Positions 12,654 to 27,711 of a stretch of 53,984 bases of DNA are shown piece after piece. Under the pieces are notes generated by a model. That model made no database searches, was not told where the DNA came from, and saw only the letters and a list, made by a program, of their open reading frames with translations. The first letter of the stretch is position 1; every line of letters begins with the position of its first letter. Both the position numbers and the translations under genes were made by a program. The DNA comes from Bacteroidetes bacterium RIFCSPLOWO2_12_FULL_35_15 (GTDB lineage Bacteria; Bacteroidota; Bacteroidia; 2-12-FULL-35-15). The DNA is taken from contig MEPB01000080.1 of assembly GCA_001769385.1 (NCBI GenBank), forward strand, positions 1,278-55,261. The letters are read 5' to 3'.

Positions 12654-15600
12654 CTAACCACAATTAGCTTTGTATCCCTTATTTACTTTTTGGCTTATTA
12701 ACTTATCAATCTCTGTTTTTGTTTGTTGTTCAGTCTCAAATAATTTAACATTTTCTTGACCTTTAGTTCCTGCTTTGCCATACCTTACTATCATTCTAAT
12801 ACCATCTTGAGCAATTTCCCAAAACTTATCTGATGAGTCATCCTTAAAATTAAAACGCTTAAAACTCAAGCCATTTTCAGAAACTGATTCATTTTTGGTC
12901 TCTTCAGTTTTTGCGTTTGTTTTTATTACCTCTTCCATCTTCTTGTCTTCAACAATAGTTGGCTCCGTTTTTACCATCAATTGTTCTTCTTCCTCGGGTT
13001 TGCCTTCAAGTGCCTTTTTGATCTGTTCCATTACCTTTTCCGGCTGATGGAGCCAATCTTTACTATAAACTTGAATAACATTCCAGTTAAAGCTTTTTAG
13101 GATAGAGGGTCTTAAAACATATTGCTCCAGTAGATTACTGTTTTTATAATGCTCTGTAGTGTCAACTAAAACACCCAAACAGTATTTATTTTTATTCTCC
13201 TTGCTTCTAACTCCAATGTTACAACGGAAATAAGATTGCCCAACATTTAAATCTGTTTTGTATCCTAAAGCATTTAACTCTTTAGCAATACCTAAAACAA
13301 TTGCATTAGTTGAAGTACGAGAAGTGTCAATTACACTATTTTTGGACAAGCTGTCTAAAGTAAGATTAGCGGATTTTAACTCTCCACGAGAAACCGACTC
13401 GGCATATTGTAAGAATTTCCGGAAGTAATTAGCTCCTTCATTATATTCGTTTTTTATATCTGCATATTTTATCGAACTAATAATAGCCATGTGTTTTTTT
13501 GCTCTTGAAAAAATTACATTTAATCGTTTCTCCCCGCCTTTACGGTTAATTGGGCCGAAATTCATAATCATTCTTTTATTATGGTCATGGCCATAACAAA
13601 CACTCATAATAATAATATCTCGTTCATCTCCTTGAACATTTTCCAAATTCTTTACAAATAACCCAACAAATTGTCCCTCTTCTTGACGTTGATATTCTTC
13701 TTCTAATTTATTTTCAAAATCTTTGTCCGCTGATGCCAAACGAATTAATGCGTTTTCAATTTCGTATTGCTGTTCTTGAGAAAATGCCACAACACCGATA
13801 CTTTGCTTTTGATCTTTATTCAAAAGTGTTTTTATTAGTTGAGCAATGTACTCTGCTTCCGCAGTGTTTGTTCGTTTATCATATACGCCATGTTCCATAT
13901 AATGGAAACTGATACTTCTATTATTTAACGAATCGAAATTCTCTATCGCATTTTCAGCTGAATTTGCTTTCACTTCGCTTAATTCTTCTGGAGGAATAGT
14001 TTGATCCGGAATGGTTAATAGATTTCGATTATAAAATGCTGCGTTTGAAAAGCTGATCAAGGATTCATACTTACTTCTGTAATGCCAGCCAAGCATAACA
14101 TCTTGAAGTTTACGAGCACCTTGTGTCAAAAGACTATCAGCATCAATACGCATGCTTTCATTTTCATCATCAATTAAATCATTATCTTCATCAGGCGCTA
14201 CAGATCCGAAAAAGTTAGATGGAGGCATTTGCATTTCATCTCCAACAATGATAGTTTGCTTTCCTCTAAATAATGGAGGAATTCCTTCTTCTAATGTAAT
14301 CTGACTAGCTTCATCAAAAATTACCACGTCAAAATATTCAGGATTCAATGGTAGGGTGTCAGAAACACTTAGCGGACTCATCAGCCAAACGGGTTTCAAA
14401 TCTTGAATTACCTTTCCGGATTCTTTAGATGCCAAATCACGAATAGATCGGAAGCGCATGCTTTTATTAAATTCATGTTCTACAATTTTTCTTCCTTCAG
14501 TATAATTTTTCTTGAATTCCTTTTCTTGAGAACTCATTCCTGAAACAGATCTTGTACTCAAGGCAATATTGTCATTAAACTTCTTACGGATTTTAGCTCT
14601 TATATATGATGCATTAATCTCGTATAGCTTTTCGAATGCCTTCTTCAGTTTGTTAATACTGTATTTTATATCCGAAGCTTCCGTTTTATGAAACTCTTTA
14701 TTACTACTATATACAGTTTTTAAGCTTTTTTCGGCCATTAAATTCTCGAACTGTTCAGGAGTGAATTTCTCTTTCTTAATAAACGCTTGAAAATTTCTCG
14801 AAGTTTCGTTCAGTTCATTTATTAATGGCAATATTTCAGGTAATGACTTTAATGAAAGTTTAATGTTTTCAATATCTTCTAAGAGATCAATTATGTTTTT
14901 AGTTTCATAATCGCTGATTGATTTATCCAGCAATTTATGAGCGTTGTCTACTTTGTCTTTTAAATCGCATAGCTCAAGAATAAGCTTTTCCTGATTAACG
15001 GAACTTAAGTAGGATAAAGTAGGTTTGTTTTTTTCTTTTCTGAAATTTTCAATGGTATCCCACGTTTCACCAATGCTATTAATCTTGAATGTAAACTCTG
15101 CTTTCTTTTCTAATTCTTTTGATTGATTAATTAAATAATACTCGGTTTGAAGTTCCTCTAAAACTTGTTTTAAACTGGGTTTTACATCATGTTTTGAAAA
15201 ATCATACGATGACTTAATAGTCTTTTTTAATTTCCAAAACCCCGGATTTAAAAATGAAAATATTGAACTTTGAAATGCTGTTAATTGTTCTTTCGCAGAT
15301 TGTAGATCTCCCTCAGAAAATTTATTTTTCCAATTACCATTCTTTTTACTTGCCTGCTCTACTTTATTTTTAAGTTCTATATAATCATATACAACTCCTT
15401 CAAATTGTTTAGTTGAGGGGTTATTGCTATCGTAAAGGAATAAATTTCCGTTCTCGGCATATGGCTTAAATCTATAAGCATCGGTCACTAATTCTTTTAT
15501 AATTAAGAAATGTTCTTTTAAATTATCAGGAATATTCGCTTTGCTTAATTCGTTACTTATAAACTCAAAAAGGTCTTCCAGTTGTTCAGCAAGTTGTTTA

Positions 15601-18113
15601 ATGTAATTTATCGGATGCTCTTGCTGTAAAGCCTCTTTACTGAGTAAACTTGCTGGATGAGAAGAAATATATGGTTCGTGATTAATTTCTTTTAGTTGTT
15701 TAGACAACTGCTGAATAAGGTTACCGTTTGAAACCCACTCTTTATATCCGGGAACCAATTCTTCCATTTCAAACGAAACATTAACATGGTTGGTCTTTAG
15801 TTCTATAAGACGTTCTATCAATTTTAAAAACGATATGCCAACATCCTCAAATTCTTTTGTTACAGTATTGTTATACTTTTCTAAACTATTTAGTTCGTTT
15901 TCAATGATAGAAATAATTTTATTTCGTTCATTTTCAATCTCAGGTAAATTGAATTTATTCTTCATGAAGTCATTATACGTTTCCTTCAAGTTCATGATAA
16001 ACTCTTTTTTATCAGCTTGAGAGTCATGAATGCGACAACATAACTCATCCAATTTTTGCTGCTTTAAGCGATAAAAAACAACATCAATAGCTGCTCGTTT
16101 TTCGCAAACAAACAATACTCTTTTCCCTCTCGCTATATAATCGGCAATTAAATTTGTAATAGTTTGAGATTTTCCTGTACCCGGAGGCCCTTGAATAATA
16201 TAACTATCTCCTGTTTTAGCCATTTTTATGGCGTTTGATTGCGTTGGATCGCAAGAGATAATGTGATATTTTTCTTTTAAATTTTCTTTCTCAACATCTT
16301 GCTTATTCAAAATGTTTTTAGGCTGATCGGAAAATAATTGTTCGAAAATAGGATCATTTATATTTTCATCAATTACTTCATTGTAATCTCTAACTAGGGA
16401 CATTTTTTTGTAATTAAAATTACCTAGTGTCATATTACAGGTGTCAAATTCCCATAAATATGGATTTGTATTACCCTCGTCAACTAAAGTAAATAGACTT
16501 CTTTCTTTTTCTGTATCAGTAATGTTATAGGTGTTTAGTTTAACATCTTCATTAATCAAAAATTCCAGATAAGAAGCCGCAGGTTCTATTTTCTGTTTGA
16601 ATATACTTAGTCCTAAAGGCTGAAAATTTTCACGCTGATAGGAATAGTCAACTTCTCTATAATGGCTTAAACTTTTGTTTCGCTTTAGCTTTCTGTTAAA
16701 TTGAGATAGGGTTTGTTTTGCTAAACTATAGATCAATTTTATTCTTGGCTTATCAATAAAATCTATTGAAATTCCCGAATTACTTAATTTGATTTGATCT
16801 TGAATACTTTGATATAGTTTACTCATTTCAAAATCATCCAAAACGATTGAGTCAGGAAGTTTAATGTCATATAATTCCCTTAACCAATAAACTAAAACAG
16901 GGTTAACTTCTGCTTCGTTTCCGGTTATATCAAGTGTGTATTGATCTTTAACACCTTTTTTCTTTTTAACTTCAACAGGAACTAATAATAAAGGAGAATT
17001 AATTTTTTCATATTTATCATCTTTCAAATTATACCAACTCAATGAGCAGATGATTAATCTTAACTGACTAAATCCATATTCATTAATGTCGCGAGTAGAT
17101 TCACTTCTAATCTTATCTAAAATTGAAGGGATGTATGGATTGTCCTCTGTTTTTAAGAACTTTGATAGAGGTATTTGCTTTCCGTTTTTTATTCTTGAAG
17201 AAATATCATCATTCCAAATAAATAAACTGTTTGGATCGATATTTCTGTAATTCAACGTTGTTGGTACAGAAGCAACAGTAAGATTTAAAAATTTTGAACT
17301 GTTTTTAAAATATAACAATCGGTTTCTTCTACTAATATCAAAAAGCCGGCTCTTAAGTTTGTTTAAAATCCATTTACTTCTTGTTGAAATGTCTTGATTT
17401 TTAAACCCTTCTAAAGAAGTTAAATCTATTTCTTTTTCAGGATTATAATCACGATAGTTTTTAAGTTTTCCTATTACTTCATGAAGATCTCTAGCTCTTT
17501 TCTTTCTATCTAACTCAGTCATCTCCATAACAATGTTTGCAATTGCAGGATGAATTTTAGAGTTTAAATGTACTAACCCTGATCTATTGGCTACAAAGGT
17601 TTTTAAGTCATCTTCATTATTTAAGTCTAATCCGGCAGCTAAGCTGCCAATGATTAATCCAAGAACAAAAATATCAGATAGTGCATCATGATGGCCTAGT
17701 AGAAATTCATATGAAACATATCCCGGTAAATAAACAGGCTTAGTTACTTCCTTGTCCTTTTCTAGTTGAATTGAGAGATTCGTTTCCTTAATATGAGATT
17801 CTTCAACATCTGTAGTTTGTTTGGTTTCATCAAGAACATCAAACACTTTACTTTTGGGCTGAGATATTTCAGATAGCTTACTATTGTTATACTTTGGCGA
17901 CTGAATAAAATTCTCGTCAATATCTAAAAGGTCATTTGTAATGAGAATATGTTTTAAACCCTCCAATGGCGCAACTTTCCCTTGCTCATGGAACGTTAAT
18001 ACTTCTTGTAATAAAGGCATTGCTATTGCAATAATATCATCGTTATGAAAACCTCCATTTTCAATGCCCTCATTCAAAAACTCAACAAAATTATTTTTTA
18101 CTATAGGTTCCAT
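12654..18113 (-). CDS. DUF4011/SF1 helicase with degenerate nuclease and WGR domains
   Basis: 1819 residues. About 28-222 resembles a kinase C-lobe (HEQGKVAPLEGLKHIL, SDIFVLGLIIGSLAAGLD, ELDRKKRARDLHEVIGKLK) without HRD or DFG. DUF4011 begins near 248 (LKSRLFDISRRNRLLYFK). The SF1 motor has GPPGTGKSQT (near 640), DEAS (near 1264), VGDEMQMPPS, VQGDERDIII and NVIFSRAKKH. A region near 1598-1700 follows the MTES_1575/Vsr-like endonuclease fold (LGYKTDLNVGQSYF through YSKDWL), but the usual catalytic IDLAV and GIECDG read CNIGV and GVLVDT, so cleavage activity is doubtful. The C-terminus is a WGR-like domain (YGKAGTKGQ), a nucleic-acid-binding type. The start is 2 bp after the protease stop, so the two form an operon. 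Related helicases occur in anti-phage systems. Confidence 0.9.
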   Translation of the reverse strand: MEPIVKNNFVEFLNEGIENGGFHNDDIIAIAMPLLQEVLTFHEQGKVAPLEGLKHILITNDLLDIDENFIQSPKYNNSKLSEISQPKSKVFDVLDETKQTTDVEESHIKETNLSIQLEKDKEVTKPVYLPGYVSYEFLLGHHDALSDIFVLGLIIGSLAAGLDLNNEDDLKTFVANRSGLVHLNSKIHPAIANIVMEMTELDRKKRARDLHEVIGKLKNYRDYNPEKEIDLTSLEGFKNQDISTRSKWILNKLKSRLFDISRRNRLLYFKNSSKFLNLTVASVPTTLNYRNIDPNSLFIWNDDISSRIKNGKQIPLSKFLKTEDNPYIPSILDKIRSESTRDINEYGFSQLRLIICSLSWYNLKDDKYEKINSPLLLVPVEVKKKKGVKDQYTLDITGNEAEVNPVLVYWLRELYDIKLPDSIVLDDFEMSKLYQSIQDQIKLSNSGISIDFIDKPRIKLIYSLAKQTLSQFNRKLKRNKSLSHYREVDYSYQRENFQPLGLSIFKQKIEPAASYLEFLINEDVKLNTYNITDTEKERSLFTLVDEGNTNPYLWEFDTCNMTLGNFNYKKMSLVRDYNEVIDENINDPIFEQLFSDQPKNILNKQDVEKENLKEKYHIISCDPTQSNAIKMAKTGDSYIIQGPPGTGKSQTITNLIADYIARGKRVLFVCEKRAAIDVVFYRLKQQKLDELCCRIHDSQADKKEFIMNLKETYNDFMKNKFNLPEIENERNKIISIIENELNSLEKYNNTVTKEFEDVGISFLKLIERLIELKTNHVNVSFEMEELVPGYKEWVSNGNLIQQLSKQLKEINHEPYISSHPASLLSKEALQQEHPINYIKQLAEQLEDLFEFISNELSKANIPDNLKEHFLIIKELVTDAYRFKPYAENGNLFLYDSNNPSTKQFEGVVYDYIELKNKVEQASKKNGNWKNKFSEGDLQSAKEQLTAFQSSIFSFLNPGFWKLKKTIKSSYDFSKHDVKPSLKQVLEELQTEYYLINQSKELEKKAEFTFKINSIGETWDTIENFRKEKNKPTLSYLSSVNQEKLILELCDLKDKVDNAHKLLDKSISDYETKNIIDLLEDIENIKLSLKSLPEILPLINELNETSRNFQAFIKKEKFTPEQFENLMAEKSLKTVYSSNKEFHKTEASDIKYSINKLKKAFEKLYEINASYIRAKIRKKFNDNIALSTRSVSGMSSQEKEFKKNYTEGRKIVEHEFNKSMRFRSIRDLASKESGKVIQDLKPVWLMSPLSVSDTLPLNPEYFDVVIFDEASQITLEEGIPPLFRGKQTIIVGDEMQMPPSNFFGSVAPDEDNDLIDDENESMRIDADSLLTQGARKLQDVMLGWHYRSKYESLISFSNAAFYNRNLLTIPDQTIPPEELSEVKANSAENAIENFDSLNNRSISFHYMEHGVYDKRTNTAEAEYIAQLIKTLLNKDQKQSIGVVAFSQEQQYEIENALIRLASADKDFENKLEEEYQRQEEGQFVGLFVKNLENVQGDERDIIIMSVCYGHDHNKRMIMNFGPINRKGGEKRLNVIFSRAKKHMAIISSIKYADIKNEYNEGANYFRKFLQYAESVSRGELKSANLTLDSLSKNSVIDTSRTSTNAIVLGIAKELNALGYKTDLNVGQSYFRCNIGVRSKENKNKYCLGVLVDTTEHYKNSNLLEQYVLRPSILKSFNWNVIQVYSKDWLHQPEKVMEQIKKALEGKPEEEEQLMVKTEPTIVEDKKMEEVIKTNAKTEETKNESVSENGLSFKRFNFKDDSSDKFWEIAQDGIRMIVRYGKAGTKGQENVKLFETEQQTKTEIDKLISQKVNKGYKANCG

Positions 18114-19590: not shown

Positions 19591-20235
19591 ATGACTAGCA
19601 ATTACTTCCTGAAAACGATTCAAACACTTCGGAAGCAGGAAGAGATAATACTGTTCGGGAACATCCTATTAATTAATGACACCGAAGCTAGTGAAGTAGT
19701 TGAATTTCTCAAAATTGAATATCATCAAGAGGCTCTAGAATACCCTTTCGAAGTACCTGATTTTGATGCTGATGCTGCATTATGGGCTGCGAAAACAATA
19801 TATACTTGCACACAACTAGTGCTTTATCGAGAAAACAGAGTATCTGATTTAGCATTTTTATTACCTGATTTCTCAAATGAGTTGACTCCTTCGGCAATTT
19901 TGTCTTGTGATTTATGCTACCGTTTTATGCCCGAAATACTCGTACAATTAAAAATTATCGATAGTGAAGATGATATACTGCCTATCCTCGAAAAGCAACT
20001 TCTATTATGGCACTATTCAGGAATTCATTATCCTTTGGAGACTGAGAAACTTGATTTTCAAACTATTTCTTCAAATAATTGTTTGCAACAATTATACATG
20101 AATCGCATAATTGAATATAAAAAGATAAATTTAGCAAAACACCAGGCATGTAAAAGTTGGATTGAAGCCAATCTGGGTATTTTTACACAAGATTTTTGGA
20201 ATGAATTGAAACTAGAAAAAAATATAAATGGATAA
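19591..20235 (+). CDS. First component of MoxR-vWA-bpX type operon, unknown fold
   Basis: 214 residues, soluble and acidic. It has FGNILLINDTEASEVVEFLK near the N-terminus, ALWAAKTIYTCTQLVLYREN in the middle and LLWHYSGIHYPLETEKLDF toward the C-terminus. It overlaps the MoxR gene by 8 bases, so the two are made together. MoxR-vWA-beta-propeller ternary systems commonly begin with such a small dedicated protein (one of the bpX families), and by position this is the best match, but I cannot assign the exact family. Confidence 0.65.
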   Translation: MTSNYFLKTIQTLRKQEEIILFGNILLINDTEASEVVEFLKIEYHQEALEYPFEVPDFDADAALWAAKTIYTCTQLVLYRENRVSDLAFLLPDFSNELTPSAILSCDLCYRFMPEILVQLKIIDSEDDILPILEKQLLLWHYSGIHYPLETEKLDFQTISSNNCLQQLYMNRIIEYKKINLAKHQACKSWIEANLGIFTQDFWNELKLEKNING

Positions 20236-21358
20236 TATTGATAAACTAAATAATGTTCTTCGCTTTGTAAAAGATTCCTTTATCGGGAAAGATGAAATTA
20301 TTGATCTGTTAGGAGTAAGTTTAATAGCAAAAGAAAATGCTTTTCTTCTTGGACCTCCGGGTACCGCTAAAAGTGCGATTGTTCGTTTGCTTTCGAGCTG
20401 TATAAAAGATGGAAAAAATTTCGAATATCTATTAACAAGGTTTACGGAGCCCAATGAAATATTCGGCCCGTTTGATATCAGAAAACTGAAAGAAGGAGAA
20501 CTCGTAACGAATACAGAAGGAATGATGCCAGAAGCATCCATGGTTTTTTTGGATGAAATATTCAATGCGAATAGCGCTATCTTAAACAGTTTGCTAACTG
20601 CTTTAAATGAAAGAATATTCAGACGTGGAAAAGAAACCAAAAAACTTCCAGCATTAATGTTTGTTGGAGCAAGTAATGTATTGCCTGAAGACGAAGCGTT
20701 AAATGCATTATTAGATAGATTTTTAATTCGAGTACAATGTGATTATGTTGACACTGATTTACTTGAAGAAGTATTATTGGCTGGTTGGAATTTAGAAAAT
20801 AAACCTTCAAACAATAAACCTTGCATTACACCGAGCGAAATCATTGAACTACAACAATTGAGTAAACAAGTTGATTTATCTCCAATACGTAAACAATATG
20901 TCGATTTAGTTCACAACCTTAGAAATACAGGCATTAAAGTATCGGACAGAAGGGCGGTAAAGATTCAAAATTTGTTGGCTGCGAGTGCAATTATGTGTAA
21001 TAGAAAAGAAGTAATTCTTTCCGACCTATGGGTATTAAAATATATTTGGGATACTGAGGAGCAAATTGAAATTTTAGCAGGTATTATTGATAACATTATT
21101 GAAAAAGACAGTTCACCACAAGCTCATCCGCAGGCCTTGTTCAATAAAACACCTAATGCGGAAGAACTTATAAAAGAAGTTACACTCCTTATCCAAAAGT
21201 GGGATTCCGGAGCTTTATCCTTTGAAGAACAGAATGTAGTAAAAGATAAATTAAGATATGTTCAAACCCGTTGTAACTGGATTAAAAACAATGAACATAA
21301 AACGCATATCCAAACCGAAATAGAATCATTATGGCACAAAATGCTTCAAACGATTTAA
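20228..21358 (+). CDS. MoxR-family AAA+ ATPase
   Basis: 376 residues. It has Walker A GPPGTAKSAIVR (about 37-48), Walker B VFLDEIFNANSAILNSLLTA (about 105), sensor-1 region LMFVGASNVLP and an arginine-finger segment NALLDRFLIRV. The C-terminal helical lid covers about 200-376. MoxR ATPases act with vWA-domain proteins as remodelling chaperones. Here the vWA partner is two genes downstream and the neighbours overlap on both sides (8 and 28 bases), so this is the motor of the module. Close relatives include RavA-type ATPases. Confidence 0.92.
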   Translation: MDNIDKLNNVLRFVKDSFIGKDEIIDLLGVSLIAKENAFLLGPPGTAKSAIVRLLSSCIKDGKNFEYLLTRFTEPNEIFGPFDIRKLKEGELVTNTEGMMPEASMVFLDEIFNANSAILNSLLTALNERIFRRGKETKKLPALMFVGASNVLPEDEALNALLDRFLIRVQCDYVDTDLLEEVLLAGWNLENKPSNNKPCITPSEIIELQQLSKQVDLSPIRKQYVDLVHNLRNTGIKVSDRRAVKIQNLLAASAIMCNRKEVILSDLWVLKYIWDTEEQIEILAGIIDNIIEKDSSPQAHPQALFNKTPNAEELIKEVTLLIQKWDSGALSFEEQNVVKDKLRYVQTRCNWIKNNEHKTHIQTEIESLWHKMLQTI

Positions 21359-22071
21359 GCTATTATTTGGTTTTAGACGAAGTACTCAAAAGTAATTTAG
21401 GAAGTATTCGATCATGGAATAATTTAAAAATTGCTTTTGATGAAAAACAAATATGGGTTAAAGATTTAGATTACGTTCAAATCAATTCTTTAGAAATTAA
21501 AAGCATTCCCTATAAAACGATTTTCTATGCCAAACAGGGGAAACTATTTCTTCTTAATAGCCTCCTTCCTAACAGAAATATTCCTTCTTTACTTTGGACT
21601 GCCATAGATAGAGCATTGCCGATAAAATTGCCTTCATTTAATCATAACTATTTTGGTATTCAAGAAAAAATTTCGATAAGTATAATTCCGTCCGAAATGG
21701 AGAACGAAGCTGTAGCGATGGCAACAACAGTTGATTCATTAAAACAATTTATCGAAACTGCCCCTGCAATAAGATTGCAAAAGTTGAACTGGGTTTTACT
21801 TAATAACGATAGAGTATTTTTGTTTGGAAAACCTCTTTTGCCTATTAACGGAGATGTATATTGGAAACGTGGTGATTCGATACTTCCCACAGGATTTGAT
21901 TTTGACTTATCTTTATTATCTGATACATTAAATAATATATTAAATCCCGAAAACCTGTTTCTGGTAGTGTGGAATATTGACAGTACTTATTCTTTAATAG
22001 CAAAAGATGAACTGCAACAATTATCTCTTAGCTCTTTCAGAAAGACAATGAATCATTTTTCACACTCATAA
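21331..22071 (+). CDS. bpX-like component of the ternary system
   Basis: 246 residues, soluble. It contains VWVKDL-like beta motifs (DEKQIWVKDLDYVQINSLEI, TIFYAKQGKLFLLNSLLPNR) and a late segment NWVLLNNDRVFLFGKPLLPI, with strand-loop-strand repeats similar to the bpX families that accompany MoxR and vWA proteins. It has no catalytic motif. It begins 28 bases inside the MoxR gene and ends 9 bases before the next start, so it is a fixed part of the operon, probably structural or substrate-recognising. Confidence 0.65.
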   Translation: MAQNASNDLSYYLVLDEVLKSNLGSIRSWNNLKIAFDEKQIWVKDLDYVQINSLEIKSIPYKTIFYAKQGKLFLLNSLLPNRNIPSLLWTAIDRALPIKLPSFNHNYFGIQEKISISIIPSEMENEAVAMATTVDSLKQFIETAPAIRLQKLNWVLLNNDRVFLFGKPLLPINGDVYWKRGDSILPTGFDFDLSLLSDTLNNILNPENLFLVVWNIDSTYSLIAKDELQQLSLSSFRKTMNHFSHS

Positions 22072-22080
22072 AAATTGCGC

Positions 22081-24621
22081 ATGGTATTCACTGACTATTT
22101 TCAATCTTATGATAATTACTTCTGGCAGTGGGAAGATAATGCTGACGTGATTGCCATACCAAATGAGAATACAATAGCTTATCGTGAGTTGGTAATTGAT
22201 GTTTTTGAGAAAATTGCACCACAAGGTGTCCCCCCTTTTGGCTCATTACTATTAGCAATTATTGCTACCAATCCAAAAGGAACAAACTCTCTTGATGTTG
22301 TAAATATCATCTTAAGTAAAGTTATAAATCAGGAAAATAAAAGTACACTGAATGATGCCATTGCATTTTTAAAATTATTGGCTGAAGTGCCTCAACAATA
22401 CAAGGAAGGGAAAAAACGAATATTACTTTTTCAAACTATTTTTGAGAGGTGCCACAATATTGTATCTGCTAGAAATTCAAAACAAATAAGAGATACATAT
22501 CACACAAATAAGCATGGCGAAGGTAAAATATCAAATAAAAAAGAGTTTAGCTTACAAGTTTTTAATAAGGATTTCAGAACAATTGGATTGTTAAAAAACA
22601 AATTTCAAGATGTTAATGATATAATAAATAAAATAGCTTCTCTGCCGGATTTCTTTGAAGAGCCTTTAGTTTTTACAGAAAATATTTCAGAAGAAAACGA
22701 CACAACTGATTTTGTTGATCAGCTTATTGCAAATAATAAAACCTTTCATGTAGGTTCATTAGTAAAAAGAATCTGGAGCGGATTAAATATTCCGGTTCAC
22801 AGTGCTCTGCCAAGTCAACAACCGTTAGGAGGATTTTCGGATTTAACCAATAAAGGTGATTTTGACAAGCTTTTAGTGTCCGAGTTTGCAAATGATGATA
22901 TCGTTTTTCTTTCACGATTAGCCAACAACGAAGCCTTATATATTCATCGCGAAGTTCCACCAACGAATAATAATCTGGAAAGAATTATTTTATTGGATGT
23001 GTCTTTAAAAAATTGGGGAACACCAAAGGCTATTGCATTTGCTACTATGCTCGCAATAGCAAAACATCCTAAAACGAATATTGAATGCAAAGCATTTTCA
23101 ATTGGTAATTCTTGTCGTCCAATTTCCATTGAGAATATCGATACTATCATTGACGGCTTACAGCACTTAGAAGGATGTTTACATTCAGCCGATGGACTAG
23201 AGGTTTTCTTCAAAGAAAATCCTCCTAATAAAAACAGAGAAATATTTCTAATAACTGAGCCATCGACACTTAAAAATGTTGGCATGCTTAAAGCGATGAA
23301 TGAGTATCATGCAGCAATAAATTATTGGATTTATACAGATGCTGATGGGAATATTGATGTGTATAAAAAACAGCAAAACAACAAAAAACACATCCAACAT
23401 ATTCAACTTCCGATTGAAGCACTTTGGAAAAAAGAAAGTAAAAATAACAGCATTTCTCAACTTAGAAACGAATCTCTTACTAATTACCCGATATTAGTTA
23501 GAAACTCCATGAATCTGAAAAAATTGATCTCTACTTCGGATGGTGAAGTTTTTCAAATAACAGGTGATAAAATGCTATTACGTCTCTTCGATAAATCTGT
23601 TAAAATTTATGAAAAAGGTTGGGAGATAATGTATGAGAACTTACCTTTCATTGCAGGTGAATTTGAGATGGGTGTATTACCTAATGGAGAGCATGTTTTA
23701 TTAATGTTTAATCCTCAAAGCAAGGAAATTGTTTTATTAAACATCAACACAGGTGAAAAGAAAAATATATTATTTATAGAATGGAAATCCTCTGCAACTA
23801 ATAGTTTTGCATATCATGAGCAAAAATTTCATCACAGAAATAATAAAGGAGTATGGAGCATTGGTATTGACGGGAAAATAGAGAAAGATGACACAATTGA
23901 TATTGAAATATTTACAAAAAGAGGTAAGGAACTAAAAGATGTTGCTCAGAAATATTCTTATGCTCAGGGTGTTCTAAAAAATATTCATCATATATATATT
24001 AATGAGTTGAATAATATTGTTTTTAATATCCATGAATTAGTTATTAATAAAGGTTATCACATCAAATTAGATAAAACAAATTTTTTACAAAGGATATCTG
24101 TTGCACAAAAAATAAAAGATAATAAGTTTGTTTTTGATGATGGAAGTAGTATTGAAATAAATCGCTGTGGATTACTTATTTTAAAAAGTAGCAATTCGGA
24201 AATCCCGATTATTTATATACCATCAGTACTCGATGCTTCATTGGGTGTGGCAACTGAACATGAATTTGCAGGCAATGAATACTATTATAAAGAATCCCAA
24301 AATGATGTGATATTATTAAAGCCGGGACCGAAAGTGCTAGAAACCGTTAGAGTAATAAAAGAATCAACAAGTCTTGGATTGATTGAGTCAAGAGATCTGG
24401 TTAACACTACTCCAACACCTTTAAGAATAAGTGTTTCGTCAAACAAGGCCAATGACATTAAAAGTTCACTTGAAGGTATTGGTGCAAAAGTTCAAATCAA
24501 AACGCTGAATAAAAGTGACGAACAACAGGAAGAAATTGAAAAGATAACAACAACTGCATTTTTCGAAAAACACATTTTATCTTTTATAAATAATATTCAA
24601 GTTCATGGAGTTAAAAATTAA
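22081..24621 (+). CDS. vWA/beta-propeller protein with L7/L12-type C-terminus
   Basis: 846 residues from the ATG at 22081 (an in-frame TTG at 22075 is less likely). A helical N-terminal part is followed by a vWA domain at about 300-450: LERIILLDVSLKNWG, FATMLAIAKHPKTNIECKAF, IFLITEPSTLKNVGMLKAM. Its MIDAS DxSxS reads DVSLK, so metal binding is probably weakened. A beta-propeller-like region spans about 475-740 (FQITGDKMLLRLFDKSVKIY, LPNGEHVLLMFNP, KGVWSIGIDGKIE). Residues 752-810 match the ribosomal protein L7/L12 C-terminal domain (VRVIKESTSLGLIESRDLVN and LEGIGAKVQIK). The next gene starts 17 bases before its stop. It is the likely scaffold or sensor of the ternary complex. Confidence 0.85.
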   Translation: MVFTDYFQSYDNYFWQWEDNADVIAIPNENTIAYRELVIDVFEKIAPQGVPPFGSLLLAIIATNPKGTNSLDVVNIILSKVINQENKSTLNDAIAFLKLLAEVPQQYKEGKKRILLFQTIFERCHNIVSARNSKQIRDTYHTNKHGEGKISNKKEFSLQVFNKDFRTIGLLKNKFQDVNDIINKIASLPDFFEEPLVFTENISEENDTTDFVDQLIANNKTFHVGSLVKRIWSGLNIPVHSALPSQQPLGGFSDLTNKGDFDKLLVSEFANDDIVFLSRLANNEALYIHREVPPTNNNLERIILLDVSLKNWGTPKAIAFATMLAIAKHPKTNIECKAFSIGNSCRPISIENIDTIIDGLQHLEGCLHSADGLEVFFKENPPNKNREIFLITEPSTLKNVGMLKAMNEYHAAINYWIYTDADGNIDVYKKQQNNKKHIQHIQLPIEALWKKESKNNSISQLRNESLTNYPILVRNSMNLKKLISTSDGEVFQITGDKMLLRLFDKSVKIYEKGWEIMYENLPFIAGEFEMGVLPNGEHVLLMFNPQSKEIVLLNINTGEKKNILFIEWKSSATNSFAYHEQKFHHRNNKGVWSIGIDGKIEKDDTIDIEIFTKRGKELKDVAQKYSYAQGVLKNIHHIYINELNNIVFNIHELVINKGYHIKLDKTNFLQRISVAQKIKDNKFVFDDGSSIEINRCGLLILKSSNSEIPIIYIPSVLDASLGVATEHEFAGNEYYYKESQNDVILLKPGPKVLETVRVIKESTSLGLIESRDLVNTTPTPLRISVSSNKANDIKSSLEGIGAKVQIKTLNKSDEQQEEIEKITTTAFFEKHILSFINNIQVHGVKN

Positions 24622-25231
24622 ACCGCATCATAAAAATAATTTTCCATTAGGCGGAATATTAATTAAAAATGCTTCAGTCGTTTTTTGGATAAAAGAAATT
24701 CAATTCTTAAAATTGAACTTAAAAGAAATCCAAATTTACCCCATCCCCGATACGATCGCAAATACTATTTGGGGATGTTTGATTGTGAATCAAAAGAAAA
24801 TAAATACCCATTCAATTGGCAAAAATGAATTATGTCAAATGGTGTCTCCTAATCTTTTTATTCCGGAAAAATCTATACTACATCCTATTATTACGATTGC
24901 TGAAATTGAAAAGCTATTCCCTTCAACAAAACATGTTATCCACCCTGAATTTGGATTGGTAGAATTAACAGAGGAACTAAATTTTGAAAAATTAATTCAA
25001 AAGCCAATATTAAAATCATATTATATAACAAAACCACACGAATCCGTTTTTATACCGAAAAAAATAAAGAGCTTTCAAGTAATGCCCTTATCATCTGAAG
25101 AAATATTAAAGAATCTGGAGGAAAATGTTTTCCCGAAAAAGGAAAAAATGAAGGACAAACCATTGAGTTTATACGAAAAGGGAAAGTTGAGCTTTTATAA
25201 AATGCTCTTTACAAAAAAAAAAAAGAAGTAA
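24605..25231 (+). CDS. Last ternary-system component, N-terminal part (zero frame)
   Basis: 208 residues. It opens MELKIKPHHKNNFPLGGILI with beta-rich segments (SVVFWIKEIQFLKLNLKEIQ, HPEFGLVELTEELNFEKLIQ) as in bpX proteins, and ends in KMLFTKKKKK. The frame stops at 25229-25231 just after a run of 12 A (25213-25224). From the run onward the -1 frame stays open, without its own nearby start, into the 25387-26328 reading frame, so the intended protein is probably about 574 residues. The site A_AAA_AAG sits in the correct phase at 25219-25225. It overlaps the vWA gene by 17 bases. Confidence 0.7.
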   Translation: MELKIKPHHKNNFPLGGILIKNASVVFWIKEIQFLKLNLKEIQIYPIPDTIANTIWGCLIVNQKKINTHSIGKNELCQMVSPNLFIPEKSILHPIITIAEIEKLFPSTKHVIHPEFGLVELTEELNFEKLIQKPILKSYYITKPHESVFIPKKIKSFQVMPLSSEEILKNLEENVFPKKEKMKDKPLSLYEKGKLSFYKMLFTKKKKK

Positions 25232-25252
25232 TTGGTGGTAATTCAACCATTG
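25219..25252 (+). promoter_or_regulatory. Candidate -1 frameshift signal A_AAA_AAG
   Basis: The slippery heptamer A AAA AAG (25219-25225) is in zero-frame phase. Slipping back one base gives AAA AAA GAA GTA and continues in the downstream frame. A weak stem just beyond (AATTGGT with ACCATT, one bulge, about 25230-25252) could stimulate. Polymerase slippage on the A12 run would give the same product. A lost A in assembly would look identical. Confidence 0.5.
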
Positions 25253-25386
25253 AAAAAACCGGAATATGGGCCAAAATAGAATCCTTCATAAATTCTATAT
25301 CCAATAAAGAAAATAAATGGTCTGATAAGCTTCAAGCGGATTTTGAAGATCTTGAAAAGAGGAACCAAAAGCAAATTGATAAGCTG

Positions 25387-26328
25387 ATGGATATGTTCAA
25401 GAACAATCCCGAGGAAGCGTTAAAATATGCGATTCCATTAGATGATATTGGCAGTACCAGAGGAGGGAACAAGTCACAACTTGACTTATTAAAAAGATGG
25501 TTTGATTTTTCTTTATTAGGAAATAATTCCAGATCGTCCTCAGGGTCAATAAATTTAGGTGACCATTATTATGAATTACAAAAACAATATAACGCAACCG
25601 CTCAAGAATTAATAAAACAAAAAGATTATCATAAAGCAGCATTCATATATATGAAATTGCTTAAAAACAATCTGATGGCCGCACAAACTTTAGAATCCGG
25701 CAATCACTTTCAAGAAGCCGCTACAATTTATTTAAAACACGCAGGCAATAAAAATAAAGCGGCAGAATGCTATGAGAAAGGGAATATGACAAATGAAGCA
25801 ATTGAAATCTATAAGGAATTAAATGAAAATGAAAAAGTTGGAGATTTATATTTAACCATCAGAAAAAGAAAAGAAGCGGATCTTTATTTTGAAAAAGTAG
25901 TAACCAATTACAAATCGAAGAATCAGTATGTAAAAGCTTCTTTAATCTATAAAAACAAAATGAATAATGAACAGGGTGGGCAATCTCTTTTATTGGAAGG
26001 GTGGCGGAGTTTTAAAGATCCATCCAATTGTTTGAATAATTATTTTTCGAATATTCGTGACATTAAAATATTAAAACGTGAAATAGAAACTATTTATGCA
26101 AATGATCTAAATCGTCAAAATAGCGAAACATTTTTACAAGTTATTCGGCATGAATACAATAAAAATAATGAGCTTTCAGATTCAATTAGAGAAATGGCTT
26201 ACGAAATTGTTGCAGCACAAATTCCTAAAAACCCTTCTATTGTCTCCGAATTAAAAGAATTTAATTTGAAAGACAAAGAATTGATGAAGGATACAATAAG
26301 ATTTAAAGTGAATAGAAAAACAAAATAA
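25387..26328 (+). CDS. Last ternary-system component, C-terminal helical-repeat part (-1 frame)
   Basis: 313 residues from the first ATG, but the same frame is open back to the A12 run and encodes another 50 or so residues there (EVIGGNSTIEKTGIWAKIES and on), so translation probably enters by frameshift. From about 60 to 200 it is a helical repeat of TPR type: YNATAQELIKQKDYHKAAFI, AAQTLESGNHFQEAATIYLK, AAECYEKGNMTNEAIEIYKE, LYLTIRKRKEADLYFEKVV. The ATG at 25387 has no ribosome site of note. The role is probably protein binding within the ternary complex. Confidence 0.7.
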   Translation: MDMFKNNPEEALKYAIPLDDIGSTRGGNKSQLDLLKRWFDFSLLGNNSRSSSGSINLGDHYYELQKQYNATAQELIKQKDYHKAAFIYMKLLKNNLMAAQTLESGNHFQEAATIYLKHAGNKNKAAECYEKGNMTNEAIEIYKELNENEKVGDLYLTIRKRKEADLYFEKVVTNYKSKNQYVKASLIYKNKMNNEQGGQSLLLEGWRSFKDPSNCLNNYFSNIRDIKILKREIETIYANDLNRQNSETFLQVIRHEYNKNNELSDSIREMAYEIVAAQIPKNPSIVSELKEFNLKDKELMKDTIRFKVNRKTK

Positions 26329-27002: not shown

Positions 27003-27084
27003 ATTTCATTTGTCATTTTCTTACCATAGGTCAATGCGCAGGTATATTATCTGTCGTAGATTTGTTTCAGATAATAACAGACAA

Positions 27085-27711
27085 ATGGATACTTTCAAAA
27101 AACAGTGGTTAGAACTTGCTAAAAAATACAGTTCCGATGAATTATTGATAAATCAATGTTATGATACATTGTGTTATGGATATTATGAACCTGAAAGGTA
27201 TTATCATAATATGCAACATATTCAATCTATGTTAGAGGAAATATATAATTGCAAAAACAATTCATTGGATATCGACTCGCTGCTTTTTGCAACTTGGTTT
27301 CACGATGTTTCTTACAACCCTAAAAGCCATACCAATGAAGCGGAAAGTGCAGCCCTAGCAATTGTATTGCTAAAACAATTAGATGTACCGGAAGTTAAAA
27401 TTCAAACAGTTCAAAAACTTATACTGTCTACAATCAATCACACAAAGGCTACAAACTCCGATACCAATTTGAATTTTTTTCTTGATTGTGATTTAAAAAT
27501 TTTAGGTGCTACCAAAGAAGAATATATGTTGTATGCCGAAAATATCCGTAAAGAATACAAACACGTGATTGGCTTTATTTATAGAATGGAAAGGAAAAAA
27601 GTATTGAAACGATTCATCGAATCAGCAAGCATTTATCGCACAGATTATTTCAGAAATAAATATGAAGAGCAAGCAAGAAGTAATATTTTATTCGAAATCA
27701 AAAACTTATGA
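27085..27711 (+). CDS. HD-superfamily metal-dependent phosphohydrolase
   Basis: 208 residues from the ATG at 27085 (MDTFKKQWLELAKKYSS). An in-frame TTG at 27010 and ATG at 27034 would add a basic stretch not typical of the family. Metal ligands are visible as YHNMQHI (about 33-39), WFHDVSYNP (about 70-78) and a later CDLKILG. It belongs to the predicted HD hydrolase group often mislabelled as an NMDA-receptor subunit. The substrate is unknown. Its stop lies only 4 bases before the CoaD-CoaE start, so the pair is coupled and a link to CoA or pantetheine metabolism is possible. Confidence 0.8.
   Translation: MDTFKKQWLELAKKYSSDELLINQCYDTLCYGYYEPERYYHNMQHIQSMLEEIYNCKNNSLDIDSLLFATWFHDVSYNPKSHTNEAESAALAIVLLKQLDVPEVKIQTVQKLILSTINHTKATNSDTNLNFFLDCDLKILGATKEEYMLYAENIRKEYKHVIGFIYRMERKKVLKRFIESASIYRTDYFRNKYEEQARSNILFEIKNL

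What the first reader, a model, noticed from the sequence alone, without database searches (positions are those of the whole stretch)
24337..24516. Ribosomal L7/L12 C-terminal domain fused to a vWA/propeller protein
Residues about 752-810 read VRVIKESTSLGLIESRDLVN and later LEGIGAKVQIK, a near-perfect L7/L12 C-terminal pattern. In ribosomes this domain recruits translation GTPases and it resembles the ClpS adaptor fold. Here it could connect the ternary system to ribosome factors or to proteolysis.
Basis: partly seen in the sequence, partly recalled or inferred. Interest (0 to 1): 0.72.

Follow-up and report, generated by a model that had tools for sequence, protein, structure and literature searches.

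The report
Ribosomal stalk domain in conflict protein
A gene of a bacterial conflict system (a predicted defence machine) carries a copy of the ribosome-stalk domain that normally grabs protein-synthesis factors; the fusion is real and this kind of fusion was already reported in 2020, but its role is still untested.

Summary
Residues 739-804 of the vWA protein (window 24304-24501) match the ribosomal L7/L12 C-terminal domain (Pfam E 1.7e-13, above cut-off; best structural matches are bL12, Z 12.3-14.6, ClpS 9.2-10.9). The operon 19591-26328 is a MoxR-vWA-beta-propeller ternary system. Kaur et al. 2020 already reported L12/ClpS insertions in such vWA proteins of Bacteroidetes, so this is a new member of a known kind.

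What I add: of 41 distinct bpX0-bearing genomes sampled, 25 carry the domain (21 of 23 in one genus, 4 of 18 elsewhere, two of those 18 truncated). It sits at two different sites flanking bpX1, in different parts of the core tree. At the window's site, three basic residues of the recalled translation-GTPase face (K70/R73/K84) keep their charge in 12 of 12 cells, against 17 of 52 at other charged positions constant in bL12. K65 is mostly lost, and the other site shows no clear preference. Most likely it is a recruitment module for translation GTPases or other stalk ligands; this is inferred. ClpS-like proteolysis is unsupported.

The parts
24304..24501 (+). L7/L12 C-terminal domain inserted in the vWA protein (residues 739-804 of P0001)
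   Evidence: Pfam PF00542 E 1.7e-13; AF2 fold, VIA Z 12.3-14.6 to the seven best bL12 chains
24349..24393 (+). Helix 4-helix 5 hairpin segment from R754 (K70 equivalent) through K757 (R73) to R768 (K84): retained basic face
   Evidence: alignment to E. coli 1ctf and bL12; the role of these three residues is recalled from the L12 literature
22081..24621 (+). vWA component of the ternary system (ATG at 22081; TTG 22075 also possible)
   Evidence: bpX0, bpX1 and L12 Pfam matches
22168..22629 (+). bpX0 domain
   Evidence: PF19915 E 2.3e-38, residues 27-180
22978..23409 (+). divergent vWA-like domain with degenerate MIDAS (D303 in 38 of 38 proteins, no conserved second Asp seen)
   Evidence: no Pfam vWA match; Foldseek of the low-confidence full model lists MDN1-MIDAS, TRAP and collagen VI vWA chains at E 0.013-0.026; column counts
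24121..24306 (+). bpX1 domain, profile positions 2-63 of 82; the L12 domain follows directly
   Evidence: PF19917 E 1.8e-19; five relatives without L12 match 1-2 to 81-82 without a break
24550..24609 (+). C-terminal helix of bpX1 resuming after the inserted L12 domain
   Evidence: aligned to the terminal helix of relatives without L12; helix 821-840 in the model
19591..20235 (+). bpX4 protein
   Evidence: PF19920 E 7.5e-73
20228..21358 (+). bpMoxR AAA+ ATPase, P-loop GPPGTAKS
   Evidence: PF20030 E 1.5e-102; P-loop read
21331..22071 (+). bpX2 protein
   Evidence: PF19918 E 1.2e-81
24605..25231 (+). bpX3 protein
   Evidence: PF19919 E 4.5e-52
25387..26328 (+). TPR protein, in one frame with bpX3 in 28 of 37 fetched loci that have both
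   Evidence: PF13174 E 6.9e-05, below its cut-off; frames counted

Best explanation
A copy of the ribosomal bL12 C-terminal domain has been inserted beside the small bpX1 domain of the vWA co-chaperone of a MoxR-vWA-beta-propeller ternary system. Shown: the domain's sequence family, its predicted fold, its place, and that it stands at two different sites flanking bpX1 in two separate groups of proteins. Inferred: it is a recruitment module. Its helix 4-helix 5 face, the surface with which the ribosomal stalk captures translation GTPases (IF2, EF-Tu, EF-G, RF3), tethers one of these factors, or another stalk-binding protein, to the MoxR-vWA complex, so that the ATPase acts on it or senses translation through it. 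Domain identity is about 0.97 likely; the confidence below is for the recruitment mechanism.
For: Pfam and TIGRFAM name bL12; 18 of 19 PDB sequence rows are L7/L12 proteins. Fold: Z 12.3-14.6 to the seven best bL12 chains. At site A (window, L029, L004, L037) the charge at K70/R73/K84 is kept in 12 of 12 cells against 17 of 52 for the other 13 positions that are charged in at least 95% of 28 distinct bL12 rows; 1 of 560 position triples does as well (with 23 rows: 17 of 56, 1 of 680). The four site A domains are 19-38% identical to each other. V66 and I69 are hydrophobic in 24 of 24. The insert is present in 21 of 23 bpX0-bearing genomes of one genus, with dN/dS 0-0.49 in 8 pairs. Two placements beside the same domain argue for selection. 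PMC6753160 (passages) states that the bL12 CTD binds IF2, EF-Tu, EF-G and RF3 through a conserved positively charged site in helices 4 and 5.
Against: K65, which I recall as part of the same face, keeps its charge in only 1 of 4 (A) and 3 of 20 (B); with it in the set, 31 of 1820 sets do as well for A and 492 of 1820 for B. Site B shows no clear preference (triple 49 of 60 against 121 of 260; 54 of 560 triples as high), and G79 is Ser, Thr or Asp in 20 of 20. The insert has a higher dN/dS than the rest of the protein in 7 of 8 pairs, which fits relaxed constraint. Which residues form the face was recalled; two searches for it found nothing. Non-ribosomal L12 hairpins in other proteins keep basic residues at the same places by eye, so retention may reflect the hairpin itself. 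The full model is poor (pTM 0.29), so whether the face is exposed is unknown. No binding was tested.
Confidence: 0.4

Rival explanations
1. The domain is a structural or assembly module, as Kaur et al. [quoted passage not shown]
For: Kaur et al. describe it so. Site B does not keep the GTPase face clearly better than other charges, and the insert evolves faster than the rest in 7 of 8 pairs. The insert is dispensable: 14 of 38 proteins have no L12 match while 38 of 38 have bpX0 and bpX1.
Against: What dimerises bL12 is its N-terminal domain (PMC6753160, passages); no L12 N-terminal domain is listed for the window protein or for the 38 proteins. Selective charge retention at site A is not explained.
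Confidence: 0.3
2. Integrated decoy: the domain mimics the ribosomal stalk so that an invader's stalk-targeting protein binds it and triggers the MoxR-vWA machine.
For: The same self domain stands at two sites in two groups of a predicted conflict system, perhaps recruited separately, and changes faster than its host; a related protein carries another self domain, TonB_C, at its C-terminus. A type III CRISPR effector, Cami1, acts at the ribosome and is called 'ribosomal stalk-captured' in the title of its paper (PMC11229360 passages and reference list).
Against: No invader protein that targets bL12 was looked for; dN/dS stays below 0.5; TonB_C is one case of 38.
Confidence: 0.12
3. The domain binds a partner specific to the system, with a surface that differs between site A and site B, and has lost translation-factor binding.
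For: At site B the best-kept charges lie elsewhere: K59 20/20, K107 20/20, E111 20/20, D/E88 19/20, E104 18/20; position 117 is Cys in 20/20 but Val or Ile in bL12.
Against: Site A keeps the basic face and not several of those positions (E104 0/4, K100 0/4).
Confidence: 0.15
4. ClpS-like adaptor that feeds N-degron proteins to a Clp protease or to the MoxR ring.
For: ClpS shares the fold (VIA Z 9.2-10.9, 7-14% identity); some lower bL12 rows (9.5-11.8) score no better than ClpS.
Against: Sequence matches are bL12, not ClpS, and the seven best fold matches are bL12.
Confidence: 0.03

Closest known systems
MoxR-vWA beta-propeller ternary systems with L12/ClpS insertion (Kaur et al. 2020, PMC7159879)
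   Same: MoxR, vWA protein, accessory proteins and TPR; same phylum; L12/ClpS domain inserted at different points C-terminal to vWA; P-loop GXXXTAKS as described
   Different: This locus was not seen in the passages and section I read. Here the two sites are mapped to either flank of bpX1 and placed on a tree; the domain lacks the dimerisation part
Ribosomal protein bL12 (L7/L12), C-terminal domain
   Same: Sequence family, fold, basic residues at 70, 73 and 84
   Different: No N-terminal dimerisation domain found, not a stalk protein by architecture; K65 changed in most copies; 45% identity to the genome's own bL12
ClpS N-degron adaptor
   Same: Overall fold
   Different: 7-14% identity, no profile match, lower score than the best bL12 chains
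Other non-ribosomal L12 CTD proteins (HTH plus ClpS-ribosomal L7/L12 proteins of lipocone operons, PMC12419801 passages; L168 and L169 here)
   Same: L12 CTD or its hairpin reused outside the ribosome
   Different: Different proteins; by eye L168 looks exported and L169 tail-anchored

Membership tests
bL12 C-terminal domain (PF00542) | Profile match above the curated cut-off over the whole domain | tested here: met
   51.1 bits against 25.9, profile 2-67 of 67
bL12 C-terminal domain (PF00542) | beta-alpha-alpha-beta-alpha-beta fold like 1ctf | tested here: met
   predicted model of residues 622-843; Z 12.8, rmsd 1.2 over 68 residues to 1ctf
bL12 C-terminal domain (PF00542) | Basic translation-GTPase face on helices 4-5 | tested here: inconclusive
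   K70/R73/K84 charge 4/4 each at site A, K65 1/4; binding itself not testable here
Ribosomal protein bL12 (whole protein) | N-terminal dimerisation domain and small size | tested here: not met
   843 aa with bpX0 and bpX1; no L12 N-terminal domain listed at E<=1; TIGR00855 below cut-off
ClpS adaptor | ClpS profile match | tested here: not met
   none listed at E<=1 for P0001, none at E<=0.01 in 38 proteins
ClpS adaptor | N-degron pocket and ClpA contact residues | not tested
   no residue-level comparison was run
MoxR-vWA beta-propeller ternary system | bpMoxR plus bpX0/bpX1 protein plus bpX2, bpX3, bpX4 in one operon | tested here: met
   all above cut-off in 19591-25231
MoxR-vWA beta-propeller ternary system | vWA domain | tested here: inconclusive
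   no Pfam vWA match; vWA chains such as MDN1-MIDAS among Foldseek matches at E 0.013-0.026 with a low-confidence model
MoxR-vWA beta-propeller ternary system | beta-propeller after vWA | tested here: inconclusive
   strands between 468 and 599; propeller-type chains such as Bub3 in Foldseek at probability 0.44-0.51
Biological conflict (defence) system | Protection against an invader | not testable with these tools
   no PADLOC match for the vWA protein, one weak match (E 0.0011) for bpMoxR; patchy presence, 3 of 36 genomes of its order

The most novel reading that the evidence does not exclude
The bL12 domain is an integrated decoy or bait of the ribosomal stalk in a bacterial conflict system: invader proteins (or stress effectors) that attack translation through the stalk are caught by the vWA protein and fire the MoxR machine. 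The bL12 copies at two sites, and a TonB_C domain in a relative, would then be instances of self domains displayed as bait, as in plant immune receptors (that comparison is recalled).
Probability: 0.12. Interest if true: 0.8.

Novelty: new member of a known kind. Interest (0 to 1): 0.4.

Why it matters
If the domain binds translation GTPases, it would give a clue to what the beta-propeller ternary systems act on; Kaur et al. [quoted passage not shown] It would tie a MoxR-vWA remodelling machine directly to the translation apparatus. The hypothesis is easy to test, because the partners and the key surface of bL12 are well known.

Tried and rejected
ClpS reading: rejected on sequence and on the best fold scores. 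'Multimerizing' reading: weakened, since no dimerisation part of L12 was found.

Chance match or assembly artefact: rejected, because the fusion recurs in 25 of 41 distinct bpX0 genomes.

Hidden L12 in L035: an insert of about 70 residues lies at site A, but profile comparison gave probability 1.4, so it is not counted. Conserved neighbours: the upstream M48 protease, the helicase and the downstream Crp-like gene had no relative in the frames of the 40 fetched loci at E 1e-5; the gene at 27010-27711 had one, in L031. They are not counted as parts. Some of these loci are short.

Single origin of site A and site B domains: the 72-column tree puts the 20 B domains with 12 bL12 rows of one group (96 SH-aLRT) and A elsewhere (A together only 43), but the tool warned of few columns and long branches, so recruitment from a local bL12 is only suggested. 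One insertion that later moved is not excluded.

Literature: searches for residue-level L12-GTPase data returned no paper, so residue names rest on recall. In the listings of searches (12 of 3,971 papers listed) and 46 I saw no experimental paper on bpX systems or on the fused L12; the library holds open-licence papers only.

A first attempt to add five bL12 rows that my pattern had missed took wrong frames for four of them; one search repeats it correctly and is the count I use.

Full report
Observation. Pfam finds bpX0 (27-180), bpX1 (678-739) and Ribosomal_L12 (739-804, E 1.7e-13, above cut-off). phmmer against PDB sequences lists 19 rows at E<=10: 18 are L7/L12 proteins (E 1.5e-08 to 0.095) and one is an unrelated regulator (0.34). 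In the whole genome there are two PF00542 matches, the ordinary bL12 and this fusion.

Context. The operon 19591-26328 encodes bpX4, bpMoxR, bpX2, the vWA protein, bpX3 and a TPR protein, the set of a MoxR-vWA-beta-propeller ternary system. The vWA part is divergent: no Pfam vWA match in 38 proteins, window included, D303 in 38 of 38 but no conserved second aspartate seen in the columns I counted, and vWA chains such as MDN1-MIDAS among Foldseek matches of a poor model. Kaur et al. note that a subset of vWA domains of these systems lack one or both aspartates (passages).

Prior print. Kaur et al. 2020 (PMC7159879; [quoted passage not shown] The finding is therefore a member of a reported kind.

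Fold. A 222-residue model (622-843, four-row alignment, mean pLDDT 67, pTM 0.51) has the L12 order of elements. VIA-align gives Z 14.6 to M. tuberculosis bL12, 12.8 to 1ctf and 12.3 or more to the seven best chains, which are bL12; bL12 rows as a whole span 9.5-14.6 and ClpS rows 9.2-10.9, so the lower bL12 rows are tied with ClpS; penicillin-binding proteins follow at 8.1-8.4. The full-length model is weak (pTM 0.29), so the orientation of the domain is unknown.

Census. Together these are 41 distinct genomes. PF00542 in the vWA gene occurs in 25 of them: 21 of 23 in g58 (not in G699 and G939) and 4 of 18 elsewhere (G000, G135, G088 and L004's genome). Two of the 18 (G333, G631) have the gene cut by a contig end, so 4 of 16 can be judged. 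G984's gene is split over several frames, with the L12 match in the last. The census asks only for proteins with bpX0; relatives without it were not counted.

Two sites. In five proteins without L12 (L005, L007, L032, L091, L030) bpX1 matches from profile position 1-2 to 81-82 without a break. In the window, L004, L029 and L037 it stops at 59-63, L12 follows, then the terminal helix resumes (site A). In two g58 proteins scanned (L042, L094) L12 ends with two or three residues left before bpX1 starts (site B); the alignment shows the same place in 20 g58 proteins, and G984's frame reads the same way. On a tree of the core without the inserts, 38 rows, site B is one clade (99) and the four site A rows lie in a starred set of five with L030, which has no L12; three changes in all (quick method, long branches warned, counts cannot tell gain from loss). 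G984 and the two cut genes were not in the tree. Two different places need at least two placement events, independent insertions being the simplest reading. In a tree of the 72-column domain the B domains fall with 12 bL12 rows of one group (96) and A elsewhere, with few columns and long branches; separate recruitment from bL12 is suggested, not shown.

Functional surface. PMC6753160 (passages) says the bL12 CTD binds IF2, EF-Tu, EF-G and RF3 through a conserved positively charged site in helices 4 and 5. From recall, not from a call, the residues are K65, V66, I69, K70, R73 and K84. Among 16 positions charged in at least 95% of 28 distinct bL12 rows, site A keeps K70, R73 and K84 in 12 of 12 cells and the other 13 in 17 of 52; 1 of 560 triples does as well. 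With K65 it is 13 of 16 and 31 of 1820. Site B keeps the triple in 49 of 60 against 121 of 260 (54 of 560 triples as high), and with K65 52 of 80 (492 of 1820). My first count, with 23 rows because a pattern missed five bL12 loci, gave 12 of 12 against 17 of 56 (1 of 680) for A and 54 of 680 for B. G984's insert was left out, so 24 of 25 domains are counted. The triple was chosen with recalled knowledge and K65 was set aside in one of the two tests, so the figures are a guide, not a probability.

Constraint. In eight pairs of close site B genes (sharing some genes, so not independent), dN/dS of the domain is 0-0.49 and exceeds that of the rest in seven. The insert is under purifying selection but weaker than its host.

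L12 elsewhere. In 375 class genomes searched with the fused-domain profile, 8 show two matches, two of them the fusions G000 and G088; G135 shows only its fusion. Of the other six, searched again with PF00542, G352 has a 356-residue protein with an N-terminal hydrophobic stretch and a C-terminal L12 domain, G368 a 157-residue protein with two L12 hairpins and a C-terminal hydrophobic segment, G342 a short hairpin frame below cut-off, G245 and G252 each two frames of bL12 size, and G300 one match. The hairpins keep K/R at the same places by eye, which is a caution: retention may be a property of the hairpin. The match list was cut, so other fusions may have been missed.

Verdict. The domain is real, a bL12-type and not a ClpS-type domain by sequence, and of a kind in print. 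The most likely role is recruitment of translation GTPases or other stalk ligands; this step is inferred. The selective basic face at site A is the main support, and site B, K65 and the raised dN/dS are the main results against it.

Noticed in passing
25208-25231 and 25387-26328: bpX3 and the TPR protein are separate frames here but one frame in 28 of 37 fetched loci that have both. The two frames meet at a run of twelve A at 25213-25224, and the other frame reads on after the run with similarity to the relatives' linker. It could be slippage, a sequencing error or a real split.
   Followed up: partly
L030:4338-6923 (genome G268): A related vWA protein without L12 carries a TonB C-terminal domain after an intact bpX1 (PF03544, E 1.2e-17); one of 38 proteins.
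   Followed up: partly
12654-18113, minus strand: Neighbouring 1819-residue DUF4011-helicase-MTES_1575-WGR protein matches the PADLOC candidate PDC-S37 (716 bits) and Hhe (303 bits); no relative in the 40 fetched loci of the ternary system.
   Followed up: partly
L168 frame at 643-1710 (genome G352): A 356-residue protein with an N-terminal hydrophobic stretch ends in an L12 C-terminal domain (76 bits), possibly an exported L12 domain.
   Followed up: partly
L169, minus-strand 157-residue frame (genome G368): Two L12-like helix hairpins followed by a C-terminal hydrophobic segment, perhaps tail-anchored.
   Followed up: no
L035:6341-8929, minus strand (genome G280): An insert of about 70 residues at the same place as the L12 insertion, with no detectable L12 similarity.
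   Followed up: partly
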